In this document: positions 18,856 to 23,385 of the stretch, piece by piece
Layout: every line of letters starts with the position of its first letter
Numbering within the stretch: position 1 is the stretch's first letter
Assembly: GCF_900445265.1 (NCBI RefSeq)
Contig: NZ_UFTA01000002.1
Location: 186,001 to 250,000, forward strand
From: Anaerococcus octavius
Lineage (GTDB): Bacteria > Bacillota > Clostridia > Tissierellales > Peptoniphilaceae
Reading direction: 5' to 3'
Length of the DNA stretch: 64,000 nt
Position numbers and translations under genes: made by a program
The notes under the pieces: generated by a model
Seen by the model: only the letters and a program-made list of their open reading frames with translations
The model's database searches: none
Told to the model about the DNA's origin: nothing

Positions 18856-21800
18856 ATGTATAATAGTTATAAGGATTATAACATATTTTATCAACTTACA
18901 TTCACATTATATAAAGATATCTTATATAGAATTTTTGTTGATAAATTACTAGAAAAGGTATTAAAGATGAAAGATTTTAATTCACAAGAAGATTTTATAA
19001 ATGGGCTTACAGAAAATATTAAGACAAATAGGAGCTCACTTGTAGGTGAAAAATTTAATATTATTTCTATGATGGGTGAAGTAAAATATGAGGTTGAAGT
19101 AAATAAACTCATAGGAGAAGGAGCTTCTGCTCTTGTTTATGAGGTATCGGTAGATGATACCTATCCACCTATTAAAAAAATGATTATGAAAGAATTTTAT
19201 CCAAACTACAATGAGGATAATATTGTTGCAGAAAGAAATCCTATTAACAGACTGGAATTATATTTTGATGCAATTACTAGCAAGGATGAACAGAGAATAA
19301 AAAAAGATCGAAATAAATTTATTGATGCCTATAATAAGCATATTAGAATTTTGGAGATGGATAGCTTTTTTGATAGCAAGATAGTAAGACCTTATAGGGT
19401 AGAGATAGACAATTCATTTTTATATTCTCTTTATGAGGTGGATTCTGCTACTAGTGTGGATAAGTATTATAATTTAGATTTGGCAAGGATTGTAGATATT
19501 CTTATTCAAACAGCAGATATACTAATCCACCTACATAATAATGATATTATATATATGGATTTAAAACCTGCTAATATACTTTATGATTATAATAATAGCA
19601 GGGTAAAATTATTTGACTTTGATGCAGCTATTGATCTAAATGAGCTTGATCAAATTAATGAATTTGCCATGCCTAGTGATAAGACCTTTATCCCACCAGA
19701 GATTAGATTTATTTCTGATATTTCTAAAAGAAAAGAAATATTTATTACCGAAGAAATAGACTTATATATGCTAGCAGCTACATTTTTTACATTATTGATG
19801 GCTAGGACTCCGACAGTAAAAGAAAATGAAGATATGGATCTATTAGAAAGAAATCTAAGAGAAGTCCTAAATCATAAGTCAAATAAAATTCTAATTAATC
19901 AAAAATCCGAGGATGAGATTGTTAGCTTATTGCAAGATACCTTATCAATTCATAGGCTAATTAGTGTAAGAGATTTTAAAGATAGGCTAATAGGAATACA
20001 AGATAATATTAGATTTAGAGATGATGAAGAATTCTCCGCAATTATATCAGCATCTTATTTTCTAGACTATCATAGACTATATAACTATATTACAGAAGAT
20101 AAGGAAAAGAAAAATATTGATGTTGCTATAGTAGGTAATAACGATGTATCAAAGATATTCTTTAGCTATATATTTTCAGTAGCTAATATCAAAGATGTCA
20201 ACTTAAATATCTCATTTTATGATAGGAATCCTAAGATTTTTTATAAAGAGATGATAGAAGAAAATCCTCTCCTATCACAAACTAGTAAAATTTTCTTAAA
20301 TAAAAAACTAGTAAATGATTATATAAATCCACAGATCACTGATAAGGCATATGCAAATATAAATTTTTTTCCTTTAAATGAGAGAATATACCAGTCATAT
20401 ATATTAATCCTAGATCCATCTGGTTATAATTACCCTCGCATGGGAGATATTTTATACAATGAGTTTAAAGCAGATAGCAAAAAAAGGATTATTTTAAATT
20501 ATTCTAGAAATAATCATAAAGTAGATATTAGGCATGAGGGAAATATTGCCTTTTATAATCTAGACCTTACCTCTACATCTACTTCTAAAAATAGATATTT
20601 TAGTGACAAGCTTTTAGATGAAGCCTTTGAATTTTATAGATATCACATAGTTAGTAACCACGGTGAAAGAGTAGATAATGAAATGGTCTGGTCAAATTTT
20701 ATAGAAAATGATTTTTATAATCTCAAATCCTCTCTTAGAGTTGCCCTCTCAATAGAATATTACAAATATATGGCTGGAATAAAAGAAAGTGATGATGTAG
20801 CCTTCAAATTTTCTAAAGAAGTAATATACAAAGATAGTGATGATGGCAAAGCAAGTCTACATGATATGCTAGCTGATTATGAACATCATTCTCGGAATAG
20901 ATTTATGATAGTCCAAGGATTTAAAGTTCCAACAGATGAACAGCTAAGATCATATTCTTATGTTGATCAAAAAAAATATGTGGATTACAGAAATAAGTAT
21001 CATCCGTTAATTTCTAATACTCATTCCAAAGTACTAAAAAAAGGTGGTGAAGATAATTTGTCAAAAATTTCACAAAAAATTGATGAAATTATAAGGCAAA
21101 AGACCATCTATAAAGAAGAACAAGTAAGATCTCGAGTTAACAATATACTAAACAATACACTTTGGGATGACAATGAGTATTTAATAAAACTTAGACCACT
21201 GTGGATAGAACTATATAAATTATCTGATAGCATAATAGAAAATGAATATTATACCAATAACTCATTAAATATTTTAACCTATGAAATAGAGGAAATATTA
21301 AATGAAGCTAGTCCAGATTTAAAACAACTTTCTAATGATTATTACCAAATAAAAGATGATCTTACTTTGATAATAAAAAGAAATAAAAGCACAGATATCA
21401 AAGCGGTAGATTATATGATAATTGATTCTATACCTTTGGTTTCTTCAAAAAGAGTAAAAACTATCTACAAACCATTTTTAGAAAGCGATGAAAATTTGTG
21501 GGCAAATATAATTGCTGCTATTAAGTTTTATCCAGAAAAACTTATTTTTTTAAGCGATTATCCTGTTGATTCAAATAAAATATATAGGATAGAAAATTTT
21601 CTAAAAAATAAGAGATTACAGAAATCTTTAAAAATTGAAACTATAACTTACGATAAGTTTAAGGACTACAGCAAAGAAAATTCCATAGTAGATCTTACTT
21701 TAAATTCTCATGCTGATGCCAAAAGAGAAGAACTAATAGGATTAGAATTTGTAGAATATATAGGATCTAATAATTGGTGCGGTAATTATAAGGCTCTCGA

Positions 21801-22971
21801 TTACTATATATATAACAGTTCGCTAACAGTAGAAGAAACTTTTTTCTTAAATAATGCTAGAATTATAGATAATGATAGCCTTGTAAGTATAACTAGGTTA
21901 AAGAAATATTATCCAAGAATATGGCAAACATATATAAATTTAAGTTCTGATGACTGGAAAAATTCTATTGAAGCAATTAATGCTAGCGAAAAATACTATA
22001 GGCTAAATATAGATAACTTTCCAAAACAAGACCAACATAGCTTAATAGAAGTTGGAGATTTTAAATTTAGAAAAAATGATGCCGGCAAATATAACTCATT
22101 AAAAAACCTCTTAGACCAATTAATTAAAGAAGAAATATTAATTGCTTATCAATTCCCAAAAAATCCTGGCAGCTTGAAACTACATTCATATAACGACAAG
22201 CTTTCTAAAGTTATTGGAGAATTTATTTCTAAAAATATGTGGGAATATAATTTATACTTTAATCTAGTAAAAACTGAGCTAGCAGAGAAAAATTATGCTT
22301 ATAGCTATAGTATATATTCAGATAAATTAAACTTTAGCTATGAATATGAAGTGGATAATCCAAAGGGATTTGCGAAGAAATTTAATAATATAATAGAAGC
22401 TATGGATAAAGAAGGTAAGCTTACAGATACTAGAATATTTAACCATATAGATAATAAACCATATGCAGAAAGTTTAGAAAAGAAAGTTATGTTAAACTAT
22501 GAATATGGAGATGCAGGATTTAGAGAATTTTTTAGTAGAAAAGATAGCCTGCTTAGAGTTTATACTTACTTTGAATTATTAAAATATTCAGAATTTTTTG
22601 ACGATATAAAAATAAAAGTAAATCTAAGGTGGAAGGCTTACGATGATTACAGGGAAGATAGTCTAGCAATTGAAAACGTACTCGACCTAGTATGCACAAA
22701 AGGATTTTCAACTATTATAATTTCTACAGTAGAAGGCAATATAAAAAATGAAGACCTATATGAGATTAATAACGACAGCAAGCAATTTGGTATGGATGCA
22801 AAGCCAGTTCTAATAACATCAAATTCTAACGATGACACTAGCCAAATAAAAATGATAGCAGCTGCAGCAGGTGTATATTTTATAGATAGAGAAATGATTG
22901 TAGAAAATAATGTAGCAGATTATATAAAAAATATTGCCCTTGGTAAAAAAGATTGGCAAAATATAGAATAA
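18856..22971 (+). CDS. Large multidomain protein: Ser/Thr kinase-like head, Rossmann/RyR-like middle, Card1-like C-terminus
   Basis: A 1371-residue protein, monocistronic. Kinase-like domain about 80-340: glycine loop LIGEGASALVYEV near 84, Lys in IMKEF near 110, catalytic loop YMDLKPANIL near 233 (Tyr replaces His of HRD), metal site FDFDAA near 253 (DFD for DFG), FIPPEI as APE-like. About 415-720: Rossmann-like IDVAIVGNNDVSKIFF, then EMVWSNF and YEHHSRNRFMIVQGF, recalling RyR domains fused to TrkA-N-type folds. About 850-1000: KLIFLSDYP and IVDLTLNSHADA, resembling the CARF part of Card1/DUF1887. About 1270-1340: NVLDLVCTKGFSTIII, DLYEINNDSKQFG, MIAAAAGVYFID, resembling the Card1 nuclease fold, with STV where E-x-K is expected. 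Domain calls beyond the kinase are pattern recognition. Two starts are possible: 18856 (AAAGGA upstream) and 18967 (AAAAGG upstream). Confidence 0.75.
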   Translation: MYNSYKDYNIFYQLTFTLYKDILYRIFVDKLLEKVLKMKDFNSQEDFINGLTENIKTNRSSLVGEKFNIISMMGEVKYEVEVNKLIGEGASALVYEVSVDDTYPPIKKMIMKEFYPNYNEDNIVAERNPINRLELYFDAITSKDEQRIKKDRNKFIDAYNKHIRILEMDSFFDSKIVRPYRVEIDNSFLYSLYEVDSATSVDKYYNLDLARIVDILIQTADILIHLHNNDIIYMDLKPANILYDYNNSRVKLFDFDAAIDLNELDQINEFAMPSDKTFIPPEIRFISDISKRKEIFITEEIDLYMLAATFFTLLMARTPTVKENEDMDLLERNLREVLNHKSNKILINQKSEDEIVSLLQDTLSIHRLISVRDFKDRLIGIQDNIRFRDDEEFSAIISASYFLDYHRLYNYITEDKEKKNIDVAIVGNNDVSKIFFSYIFSVANIKDVNLNISFYDRNPKIFYKEMIEENPLLSQTSKIFLNKKLVNDYINPQITDKAYANINFFPLNERIYQSYILILDPSGYNYPRMGDILYNEFKADSKKRIILNYSRNNHKVDIRHEGNIAFYNLDLTSTSTSKNRYFSDKLLDEAFEFYRYHIVSNHGERVDNEMVWSNFIENDFYNLKSSLRVALSIEYYKYMAGIKESDDVAFKFSKEVIYKDSDDGKASLHDMLADYEHHSRNRFMIVQGFKVPTDEQLRSYSYVDQKKYVDYRNKYHPLISNTHSKVLKKGGEDNLSKISQKIDEIIRQKTIYKEEQVRSRVNNILNNTLWDDNEYLIKLRPLWIELYKLSDSIIENEYYTNNSLNILTYEIEEILNEASPDLKQLSNDYYQIKDDLTLIIKRNKSTDIKAVDYMIIDSIPLVSSKRVKTIYKPFLESDENLWANIIAAIKFYPEKLIFLSDYPVDSNKIYRIENFLKNKRLQKSLKIETITYDKFKDYSKENSIVDLTLNSHADAKREELIGLEFVEYIGSNNWCGNYKALDYYIYNSSLTVEETFFLNNARIIDNDSLVSITRLKKYYPRIWQTYINLSSDDWKNSIEAINASEKYYRLNIDNFPKQDQHSLIEVGDFKFRKNDAGKYNSLKNLLDQLIKEEILIAYQFPKNPGSLKLHSYNDKLSKVIGEFISKNMWEYNLYFNLVKTELAEKNYAYSYSIYSDKLNFSYEYEVDNPKGFAKKFNNIIEAMDKEGKLTDTRIFNHIDNKPYAESLEKKVMLNYEYGDAGFREFFSRKDSLLRVYTYFELLKYSEFFDDIKIKVNLRWKAYDDYREDSLAIENVLDLVCTKGFSTIIISTVEGNIKNEDLYEINNDSKQFGMDAKPVLITSNSNDDTSQIKMIAAAAGVYFIDREMIVENNVADYIKNIALGKKDWQNIE

Positions 22972-23011: not shown

Positions 23012-23227
23012 GGAATAATAAATTAATTTTTATATTATAACTTGTTTTTCTTAACACTTAGCTACTAAGCATAGTACATTTTATAAACTATAAATAAAAC
23101 ACTCCATTATATGTACAAAATTATTTGATAATATTATATCAATTTTATTATAACTTTATTTAAAAAAACGATAATATTTTTTTGCATTATGTTATAATAA
23201 AAGAGCAAAAATTTTTGAGGGAAAAAA
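23012..23227 (+). promoter_or_regulatory. AT-rich region with glmS promoter
   Basis: Very AT-rich and without a credible reading frame. A good -10 box TATAAT lies at 23193-23198, about 40 bases before the ribozyme core. I see no convincing -35 box at 17 bases, so only the -10 is supported. Confidence 0.5.
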
Positions 23228-23362
23228 TATAAGAAGCGCCAGGACCTTTTGGTTGACGAGGAGTGGAGTTATCGAAAAATTCGGCGGATGCTCCACAGGT
23301 ATTACAGCCTTAGTAATGTACAAATATTTCTAGTAATAGGATAACAAAATCATTACAGTAAA
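23228..23362 (+). ncRNA. glmS glucosamine-6-phosphate-activated ribozyme
   Basis: The conserved core is unmistakable: AGCGCC at 23235-23240, GGTTGACGAGGAGTGGAG at 23251-23268, TTATCGAAA, ATTCGGCGGATGCTCC, then the P3-P4 pairing arms up to the glmS ribosome site. Self-cleavage is expected just 5' of G23236. In the known mechanism, GlcN6P acts as cofactor, cleavage exposes the mRNA to degradation, and glmS expression falls when the product is abundant. The 3' boundary is approximate. Confidence 0.95.
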
Positions 23363-23385
23363 CCCTCACCACAAGGAGGTTTATA

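What the first reader, a model, noticed from the sequence alone, without database searches (positions are those of the whole stretch)
18856..22971. Kinase-headed 1371-residue protein with Rossmann/RyR-like middle and Card1-like C-terminus
The kinase motifs are visible directly (LIGEGAS, IMKEF, YMDLKPANIL, FDFDAA). Downstream, IDVAIVGNNDVSK plus YEHHSRNRFMIVQGF recalls Rossmann-RyR pairs. KLIFLSDYP, IVDLTLNSHADA, NVLDLVCTKGF and DLYEINNDSKQFG recall Card1/DUF1887 proteins (CARF plus PD-(D/E)xK) of type III CRISPR signalling. No CRISPR locus is present. A single chain joining a kinase to a cyclic-oligonucleotide-type effector fold would be a new arrangement: a stand-alone sensor/effector that may be nucleotide-gated and phospho-regulated.
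Basis: partly seen in the sequence, partly recalled or inferred. Interest (0 to 1): 0.75.

Follow-up and report, generated by a model that had tools for sequence, protein, structure and literature searches.

The report
Kinase fused to RyR and dead Card1
A gene of an Anaerococcus bacterium joins a protein kinase to modules that look able to bind signal nucleotides and to a CRISPR-type nuclease whose cutting site has been lost; relatives of it sit beside NAD-destroying immune proteins, which suggests an unstudied kinase-based anti-virus signalling system.

Summary
The order is Ser/Thr kinase, TrkA-N-like Rossmann domain, RyR-like domain, CARF-like domain, PD-(D/E)xK-like domain. The C-terminal 532 residues fold-match DUF1887-type proteins (VC1899 E 5.7e-9; ranks 1-16 all VC1899, Can2 or Cdn1).

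The nuclease looks dead here. The Glu needed in Can2 is V1275 and the ExK lysine is V1292. All 8 clade A/B rows lack both; kin G028 keeps Glu, Asp and Lys. The 10 such sequences form one clade; the domain is still under strong purifying selection. Lys99 of Can2 is His here, and no Csm1-type Cas10 passes its cut-off in 31 Anaerococcus genomes. So a nucleotide-gated nuclease is not supported for this protein.

The family is not stand-alone. In relatives it sits in an operon with two partner proteins and a DUF4062-STAND-TPR protein (DUF4062: a TIR-like antiphage NADase, 2026 preprint); three of four assessable distant homologues lie near TIR genes. RyR domains bind cyclic ADP-ribose signals (2026 preprint).

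Best model: a kinase switch read out from nucleotide signals in TIR-type defence. The architecture is firm; the mechanism is inferred.

The parts
18856..22971 (+). whole fusion gene, 1371 codons plus stop; most homologues start at the position of the internal ATG at 18967 (residue 38)
19033..20025 (+). protein kinase domain (about residues 60-390) with K112, D235, N240, D254 (DFD in place of DFG)
20113..20595 (+). TrkA-N/NAD-type Rossmann domain (about residues 420-580)
   Evidence: among the better-predicted parts of the model; TrkA 4j9u Z 9.0; RCK/TrkA-N chains Z 7.5-7.7
20818..21090 (+). RyR-like domain (about residues 655-745); positions that I equate with RyDEP H75/W78/H100/D117 are H677, R680, H716, D733; the Trp kept by the 10 other rows is Arg (CGG) here
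21403..21870 (+). CARF-like domain (about residues 850-1005); the place of Can2 GGTK reads LNSH
21871..22470 (+). family-specific insert between CARF and nuclease (about residues 1006-1205), poorly aligned to Card1
22483..22950 (+). PD-(D/E)xK-like domain of the Card1/Can2 type without its active site (about residues 1210-1365): V1275 (Glu in Can2), D1277 kept, S1290-T1291-V1292 in place of ExK/SxK

Best explanation
The gene makes a multi-domain signalling kinase. SHOWN by sequence: an intact-looking Ser/Thr kinase is followed by three modules whose known relatives bind nucleotides (TrkA-N Rossmann, RyR-like, CARF-like) and by a Card1/Can2-type nuclease domain that lost its active site, most simply once, before the gene duplicated inside Anaerococcus. 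INFERRED: ligand binding by the middle and C-terminal modules turns the kinase on or off, so the output is phosphorylation and no longer DNA or RNA cutting; the dead nuclease serves as part of the dimeric sensor body. INFERRED from gene order: the signal comes from, or is aimed at, a TIR or TIR-like NADase system. In relatives the gene forms an operon with a 176-aa protein, a 560-aa protein and a DUF4062-STAND-TPR protein, and distant homologues lie near TIR genes and, in two, beside a PP2C phosphatase that could reverse the kinase. The RyR-like module is the best candidate to read an ADP-ribose or cyclic ADP-ribose product. In the window's own genome only a fragment of the NADase gene was found and the fusion sits alone between rpoC and rpsL, with the 176- and 560-aa partners intact elsewhere on the same contig (at 1.70 Mb against 0.205 Mb).
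For: Kinase: PF00069 above gathering, catalytic residues conserved in 10 of 10 rows. C-terminus: control. Active-site loss: E to V/I/F/H/T and K to V/I/T in 8 of 8 clade A/B rows (K position V/I/T in all 10); E276A/D278A kills Can2 (PMC7969007, passages). One clade of 10, support 99/99. Purifying selection on the dead domain: dN/dS 0.04 and 0.04, kinase 0.03 and 0.03, in two close pairs of G029, G027 and G020 copies. Partners: 176-aa protein in exactly the same 8 of 31 genomes as the fusion (1.3e-7 if genomes were independent); 560-aa protein whole in 7 of the 8; full-length DUF4062-STAND-TPR in 4 of the 8 genomes, a fragment of its TPR end in 2, separate STAND and TPR fragments upstream in G028. 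TIR link: 3 of 3, 1 of 2 and 2 of 9 of the TIR_2 genes of G492, G878 and G875 lie within 8 kb of the fusion. PP2C directly upstream in L062 (Pfam hit) and L073 (by similarity to it). DUF4062 = TIR-like antiphage NADase (preprint PMC13174449). RyR domain binds or cleaves 2'/3'cADPR (preprint PMC13232231); its four ligand residues map, in my reading, to H677, 680, H716, D733 (first pair +3 and last pair +17 apart as in RyDEP; the middle distance H to H is 39 here against 25), all four kept in 9 of 11 rows.
Against: I found no ligand, kinase substrate or phage phenotype reported for any member (searches listed in Tried and rejected). The window protein has R680 where the 10 other rows have Trp, so its own RyR pocket may be altered. 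RyR membership is weak by direct profile comparison and does not reach Pfam cut-off in the fusions scanned; the RyDEP sequence itself was not aligned. The kinase of the distant L062 protein is below Pfam cut-off (15.6 bits). The fourth assessable distant homologue (G929) has ThiF and AAA neighbours and no TIR among six scanned; in G735 the contig ends and its two TIR genes lie on other contigs. G020 keeps the fusion with no NADase match at E 1e-20. Both structure models have low confidence (mean pLDDT 52.7 and 50.4). The partner association could be inherited linkage, not function.
Confidence: 0.45

Rival explanations
1. Negative regulator (brake) of the NADase: the fusion holds the DUF4062-STAND protein in check by phosphorylation, or by sequestering or cleaving its cyclic ADP-ribose product with the RyR-like domain, as phage RyDEP does.
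For: Gene order next to the NADase-STAND gene; RyDEP precedent for sponging and cleavage; the positions that I equate with the RyDEP catalytic pair H75/D117, H677/D733, are kept in 11 of 11 rows.
Against: In G000, G020 and G029 whole fusions persist where the NADase gene is a fragment or has no match, and the G029 and G020 copies are under strong constraint (L031 against L033); a brake without a toxin should decay.
Confidence: 0.2
2. Domesticated housekeeping or stress-signalling kinase: after loss of the defence partner the clade A copy was kept for another role in the cell, together with the 176- and 560-aa partners.
For: Clade A copies other than G024's lie near core genes (rpoC, rpsL/fusA, glmS, luciferase-like oxidoreductase); the three close copies (G029, G027, G020) show dN/dS of 0.03-0.09 in kinase, Rossmann, CARF and nuclease-like parts; whole fusions survive with no whole NADase gene found in G000, G020 and G029.
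Against: Present in only 8 of 31 species; the RyR-like region is the least conserved (47-51% identity against 69-85% for kinase and nuclease-like domains), as in conflict systems.
Confidence: 0.22
3. One reading: a stand-alone, nucleotide-gated effector with a working Card1-type nuclease, phospho-regulated by the fused kinase.
For: Fold and profile match to Card1/Can2; distant members (L062, L075, L126) and G028 keep the nuclease motif (sequence strings), so it may hold for them.
Against: The window clade lacks both the Glu and the Lys of the active site; the Can2 Lys99 position is His952; no Csm1-type Cas10 above cut-off in the genus.
Confidence: 0.05
4. Decaying relic in this strain: the fusion is on its way out after the operon broke up.
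For: R680 instead of Trp at a predicted ligand position; operon remnants with stops elsewhere in the same genome.
Against: Full-length frame and conserved kinase residues; dN/dS 0.03-0.22 against L030, though dS is 1.6-2.8 and so rough; against L029 0.18 (kinase) and 0.38 (RyR), other parts saturated.
Confidence: 0.08

Closest known systems
Card1 / Can2 / VC1899 (DUF1887; PF09002; PADLOC CARF4-PDDEXK)
   Same: CARF plus PD-(D/E)xK order and fold in residues 840-1371
   Different: Catalytic Glu and Lys lost, Can2 Lys99 position is His952, a roughly 200-residue insert, fused to kinase and Rossmann-RyR-like parts, no Csm1-type CRISPR partner above cut-off
Swarozyc (DUF4062 TIR-like NADase defence; preprint PMC13174449, outline and passages read)
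   Same: A DUF4062 domain is the N-terminus of the STAND-TPR gene next to the fusion in relatives
   Different: In the passages read, Swarozyc is tested as a single protein; the main text has 0 hits for CARF and 2 for kinase, neither about a partner (supplements not seen); the window has no DUF4062 gene beside the fusion
RyDEP and RyR/R12 domains (PF02026; preprint PMC13232231, one section and passages read)
   Same: Order of the ligand residues H, W, H, D and two of their three spacings; TIR neighbourhood in distant members
   Different: Here the RyR-like part is inside a host kinase fusion; below Pfam cut-off; Trp is Arg in the window copy
Kinase-phosphatase defence modules such as KKP (PMC11341870, start of abstract in a search listing only)
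   Same: PP2C gene directly upstream of the kinase fusion in L062 and L073
   Different: No PP2C noticed beside the Anaerococcus loci (ORF lists, not all scanned by profile); kinase fused to CARF/RyR-like modules
PD-T4-6 and MADS Mad6 defence kinases (PADLOC)
   Same: Best PADLOC hits of the kinase domain
   Different: Match lies in the kinase region of P0001 only
Rossmann-RyR protein next to a TIR gene (L128, found here)
   Same: Ends 42 bp before a TIR gene in G875; residues 486-551 are hit by the profile of this family and residues 532-579 by PF02026, the overlap holding EHDRW...GY
   Different: No kinase, CARF or nuclease part seen in that 581-aa protein

Membership tests
Card1/Can2 (DUF1887, PF09002) | CARF plus PD-(D/E)xK fold | tested here: met
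   hhalign 98.9%, 95.9% for the nuclease part with window-type rows alone, control 0.1%; Foldseek ranks 1-16; VIA Z 16.4 and 15.1; model of low confidence, TM-scores 0.19-0.24
Card1/Can2 (DUF1887, PF09002) | Catalytic Glu-x-Asp and Lys | tested here: not met
   V1275, D1277, S1290-T1291-V1292; Can2 E276A/D278A inactive (PMC7969007)
Card1/Can2 (DUF1887, PF09002) | cA4-binding residues (Lys99 in the GGTK loop of Can2) | tested here: not met
   GGTK of Can2 falls on LNSH, Lys99 on H952; the other contact residues (Ser19, Thr42, Tyr118) were not compared
Card1/Can2 (DUF1887, PF09002) | Pfam gathering score of PF09002 | tested here: not met
   no match at E 1 in P0001; G028 relative 21.9 bits and 25.3 bits against 26.4
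Type III CRISPR ancillary effector | Cas10 cyclase in the same genome | tested here: not met
   TIGR02578 (Csm1) over cut-off in 0 of 31 genus genomes, no match in G000; 8 of 31, G012 among them, have partial matches far below cut-off; 3 of 14 control genomes pass the cut-off; Cmr2-type Cas10 not searched
Eukaryotic-type Ser/Thr protein kinase (PF00069) | Gathering score and catalytic K/D/N/D | tested here: met
   66 bits against 31.7; conserved residues
RyR domain (PF02026) | Pfam gathering score | tested here: not met
   no RyR match in P0001, L062, or pieces of L073, L075, L126
RyR domain (PF02026) | Ligand residues H, W, H, D of RyDEP/R12 | tested here: inconclusive
   all four in 9 of 11 rows; the window has H, R, H, D and L030 has H, W, N, D; mapping is by spacing, RyDEP itself not aligned; hhalign to two RyR sequences E 0.036 and 0.0017; bridge protein L128
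TrkA-N Rossmann | Rossmann fold | tested here: met
   TrkA 4j9u Z 9.0, 128 residues, rmsd 3.2; other NAD Rossmann folds score alike (4n7r Z 9.3), so TrkA-N in particular is not singled out
Swarozyc | DUF4062 NADase gene | tested here: not met
   none beside the fusion in the window; in G000 the STAND query matches only a TPR-end fragment with stops
Any antiphage system | Protection against phage | not testable with these tools
   needs an experiment

The most novel reading that the evidence does not exclude
A TIR-type immune pathway in which a cyclic or linear ADP-ribose signal made by a TIR or DUF4062 NADase is read by a RyR domain wired, in one chain, to a protein kinase and to a Card1 module. 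In Anaerococcus the Card1 nuclease has been turned into a non-catalytic sensor body, so a nuclease effector became a kinase effector. It would link TIR, RyR, CARF and kinase signalling in one protein.
Probability: 0.25. Interest if true: 0.88.

Novelty: new variant of a known kind. Interest (0 to 1): 0.62.

Why it matters
CARF effectors are known (partly from recall, partly from the listings) as nucleases, deaminases, phosphatases and others fired by cyclic oligoadenylates; a kinase attached to a dead Card1 module would be a different logic. A May 2026 preprint shows phage RyR-domain proteins binding and cleaving TIR-made cADPR signals; a host protein with a RyR-like domain, a kinase and TIR neighbours would be a candidate host receptor for such signals, which makes the role of bacterial RyR domains directly testable. 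The family also gives a natural series by sequence: motif-intact nuclease without kinase (G875, G929), motif-intact nuclease with kinase (G492, whose kinase is weak by Pfam, and G028), dead nuclease with kinase (window clade).

Tried and rejected
cA4-gated nuclease: rejected for this protein on active-site and GGTK loss and absence of Csm1-type Cas10 above cut-off. Mobile or phage-borne origin: no tblastn match of residues 395-1371 in 72,556 plasmid or 50,697 phage records, none in viral contigs with A2 or A7. Homology of the 565-aa protein of L062 to the 560-aa partner: looked at by eye only, no claim made. Solved structures by sequence: A2 and A7 profiles match none at E 1; L063 alone none at 0.1. 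Foldseek on the 977-residue model: best hit 1xmx only at E 0.024; the 532-residue model was needed. Deepening the alignment for structure prediction from viral contigs failed.

Papers: searches gave nothing to the point except PMC4012209 (CARF and WYL domains) and PMC3710099, not opened; some searches listed related papers on conflict or CARF systems (for example PMC7159879, PMC4012209, PMC9503650) that I did not open, so prior mention there is not excluded. Searches gave the three papers that I read in part (PMC7969007, PMC13174449, PMC13232231). The paper that I recall as the likeliest prior description of Rossmann-RyR and DUF1887 combinations (Burroughs et al. 2015, NAR) and the CARF classification of Makarova et al. 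2020 are not held. That I know of no description of this architecture rests on the titles and abstract beginnings listed.
Full report
WHAT IS THERE. The ORF at 18856-22971 (+) is present as described. It lies in an Anaerococcus genome: the window is G000:C1:186001-250000, and the seven named loci with homologues are all Anaerococcus. Its neighbours are housekeeping or metabolic: rpoC side, OPT transporter, PqqD-like protein, aldo-keto-reductase-like protein and luciferase-like oxidoreductase upstream; glmS with its ribozyme, thiol peroxidase, then rpsL, rpsG, fusA and tuf downstream (rpoC, rpsL, rpsG, fusA and tuf are named from their sequences by recall). Most homologues start at the position of residue 38; the window ORF has an extra 37-residue leader that may be untranslated.

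DOMAINS. Pfam sees only the kinase. K112, D235, N240 and D254 are conserved in 10 of 10 rows that include the kinase; the DFG glycine is Asp in all. Residues 840-1371, modelled alone (mean pLDDT 50.4), give Foldseek ranks 1-16 that are all VC1899, Can2 or Cdn1 (1xmx 5.7e-9; TM-scores by query length only 0.19-0.24) and VIA Z 16.4 and 15.1 to VC1899 and Can2, with rmsd near 23, as the aligned parts are not superposed as one body. Profile comparison agrees: 98.9%, E 1.3e-17 with distant members included; 95.9%, E 5.6e-9 for the nuclease part with eight window-type rows only; the Rossmann-RyR alignment as control gives 0.1%.

THE NUCLEASE IS DEAD IN THIS CLADE. In Can2, E276A/D278A abolishes activity (PMC7969007, passages read). 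The same column is V, I, V, F, I, H, H, T in the eight clade A/B rows and E in G028, L062 and L075; the Asp is kept in all 11. The ExK lysine position is V, I or T in clade A/B and K in G028. For L062 and L075 that alignment column gives I and T, because MAFFT opens a gap at this place; the strings printed read VECK and IECK, so I count their Lys as kept, by reading. Stand-alone DUF1887 proteins collected here read ISCK in 4 of 5 rows (the fifth ISCT), so the Ser in place of Glu at 1290 is not itself a sign of inactivity; loss of the first Glu and the Lys is. A solved Can2 (8q3y) also lacks a Lys there (its string reads ISLTT), so loss of the Glu is the stronger of the two signs. The ten pseudonuclease sequences form one clade (99/99; the tool warns of long branches; G878, which looks degenerate too, carried no label), so one loss before the A/B duplication suffices. 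The domain is still constrained: dN/dS 0.04 in two close pairs, like the kinase at 0.03. It is therefore kept for something other than cutting (inference). The GGTK loop that carries Lys99 of Can2 falls on LNSH; the His is conserved in all 8 rows of A12.

THE RyR-LIKE DOMAIN. Direct comparison with two RyR sequences is weak but in register (E 0.0017 for distant members, 0.036 for Anaerococcus). Three further facts support it. (i) The profile of the family (A13) hits a TrkA-like/RyR protein of G875 at E 2.8e-5 (residues 486-551 of L128's 581-aa ORF), and Pfam RyR hits residues 532-579 of the same protein at E 3.9e-5, 24.3 bits, below its cut-off of 27.4. The two hits share only about 20 residues, but these hold the EHDRW...GY motif. 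(ii) In the RyDEP structure the ligand is held by H75, W78, H100 and D117, conserved across PF02026 (preprint PMC13232231, one section and passages read). I equate these with H677, W680, H716 and D733: the first two are 3 apart and the last two 17 apart in both, while the two His are 39 apart here against 25; the RyDEP sequence was not in hand. All four are present in 9 of 11 rows; exceptions are the window itself (R680) and L030 (N716). (iii) A true RyR gene (E 4.4e-36) lies directly downstream of the fusion in L062. It stays 'RyR-like'.

SYSTEM AND PARTNERS. In L021, L022 and L023 the fusion (clade B; split by a stop in L022) is preceded by a gene of 176-190 aa and one of about 560 aa and followed by a gene of 1243-1287 aa, which in L023 has DUF4062, a STAND-type NPHP3_N NTPase and TPRs. 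Five near full-length copies of that gene share the N-terminal DUF4062 sequence blocks and a P-loop; which Glu is catalytic was not tested. In L024 a clade A fusion sits in the same order but without the 176-aa gene. DUF4062 is a TIR-like NADase that protects against phage (preprint PMC13174449, outline and passages read). Over 31 genus genomes the fusion and the 176-aa protein occur in exactly the same 8. The 560-aa protein is whole in 7 of these and a 72-position fragment in G013, and in no other of 248 order genomes searched. STAND genes of full or nearly full length are in 4 genomes (5 genes), fragments of the TPR end in G029 and G000; G028 has STAND and TPR fragments upstream of its 175-aa gene and fusion. 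In G000, G020 and G029 the operon keeps the 176- and 560-aa genes while the cis fusion is decayed and the NADase is a fragment or has no match at E 1e-20; an intact clade A fusion persists elsewhere in each. This suggests a three-protein unit that can act without the NADase; the co-occurrence figure (1.3e-7) ignores shared descent.

DISTANT RELATIVES. Five were found in one other family (f21) of the class: L062 (1507 aa, kinase-like part below Pfam cut-off, nuclease motif intact, PP2C gene upstream), L073 (PP2C plus kinase-Rossmann-RyR, cut by the contig end), L074 (1427 aa, TIR-LRR gene upstream, FHA/FtsK ATPase downstream), L075 (1005 aa, no kinase, motif intact, TIR-MORN gene overlapping its end), and L126 (1051 aa, no kinase, string NEVD...VSCK, ThiF and AAA neighbours). 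TIR_2 genes within 8 kb: 3 of 3 in G492, 1 of 2 in G878, 2 of 9 in G875; product of chances 2e-5 under uniform placement, for the three loci that have one. G929 is a miss among six scanned neighbours; G735 cannot be judged (its two TIR genes are on other contigs). In 298 genomes of that family, 35 match the A13 profile at E 1e-4: 5 over two or more domains, 24 only over the C-terminal part in frames of 390-564 codons, 6 only over the RyR-like region (my count of the rows). Within the order, outside Anaerococcus, only a weak CARF-region match in G120 was found (9 of 249 genomes match in all), and 3 of 398 match in a phylum sample including G000.

HOW IT MAY WORK. Shown: domain content, kinase residues, loss of the nuclease motif, constraint, gene neighbourhoods. 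Inferred: nucleotide sensing by the Rossmann, RyR-like and CARF-like modules; kinase as output; the DUF4062 or TIR protein as source or target of the signal; partners as substrates or adaptors. Against: no phenotype found in print, R680 in the window copy, weak RyR statistics, one distant locus without TIR, low-confidence models. The brake model and the domesticated-kinase model are the main rivals. The RyR-like region is the least conserved part against other clade A members (47-51% identity; the CARF-nuclease insert 48-60%; kinase and nuclease-like domains 69-85%), which fits a conflict setting but also relaxed constraint.

NOVELTY. I saw no title or abstract beginning on this architecture, but several related papers were not opened and two key papers are not held. 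I rate it a new variant of a known kind: CARF, RyR, TIR and kinase parts are known, their union with a dead Card1 nuclease is, as far as I could check, not.

Noticed in passing
L128 2925-7229 (G875:C71:38924-43228): A TrkA-like Rossmann-RyR protein ends 42 bp before a TIR gene: a second, kinase-free RyR-TIR pair in the genome that also holds L075.
   Followed up: partly
L026 5304-6335 (G027): In the clade B operon of G027 only the kinase part (343 aa) is left as an open ORF between the 560-aa gene and a DUF4062-STAND gene of 1261 aa: the Rossmann-RyR-CARF tail is gone although its neighbours are open frames.
   Followed up: no
L022 5168-9187 (G012): The clade B fusion of G012 is split into a 344-aa kinase ORF and a 992-aa tail ORF by a stop at the kinase/Rossmann border.
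   Followed up: no
window 19033-20025 against 20113-22950: Window and G012 clade A copies: dS 0.57 in the kinase but about 1.05 (RyR) or saturated in the other measured domains, which hints at recombination or exchange of the kinase part.
   Followed up: partly
window 20893-20895: Codon CGG (Arg680) where all 10 other aligned members have Trp at the predicted nucleotide-stacking position.
   Followed up: yes
L028 3957-7095 (G000:C1:1697956-1701094): Broken operon in the window's own genome: intact 177- and 560-aa genes, remnant of a second kinase, remnant of the STAND-TPR end.
   Followed up: yes
L074 642-5515 and 12574-17199 (G878): The fusion is flanked by a protein with an RyR-type EHERW motif, a TIR-LRR protein and an FHA/FtsK ATPase that looks EssC-like: possible link of phospho-signalling to a type VII-like secretion locus.
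   Followed up: no
L126 2796-10375 (G929): Kinase-free Rossmann-RyR-CARF-nuclease protein beside ThiF and AAA genes, reminiscent of ubiquitin-like conjugation loci (recall).
   Followed up: no
window 23224-23367: glmS ribozyme (RF00234, 79 bits) upstream of glmS.
   Followed up: no
L041 17152-18606: Stretch read as N beside the clade A operon of Anaerococcus sp. 9403502; not examined.
   Followed up: no
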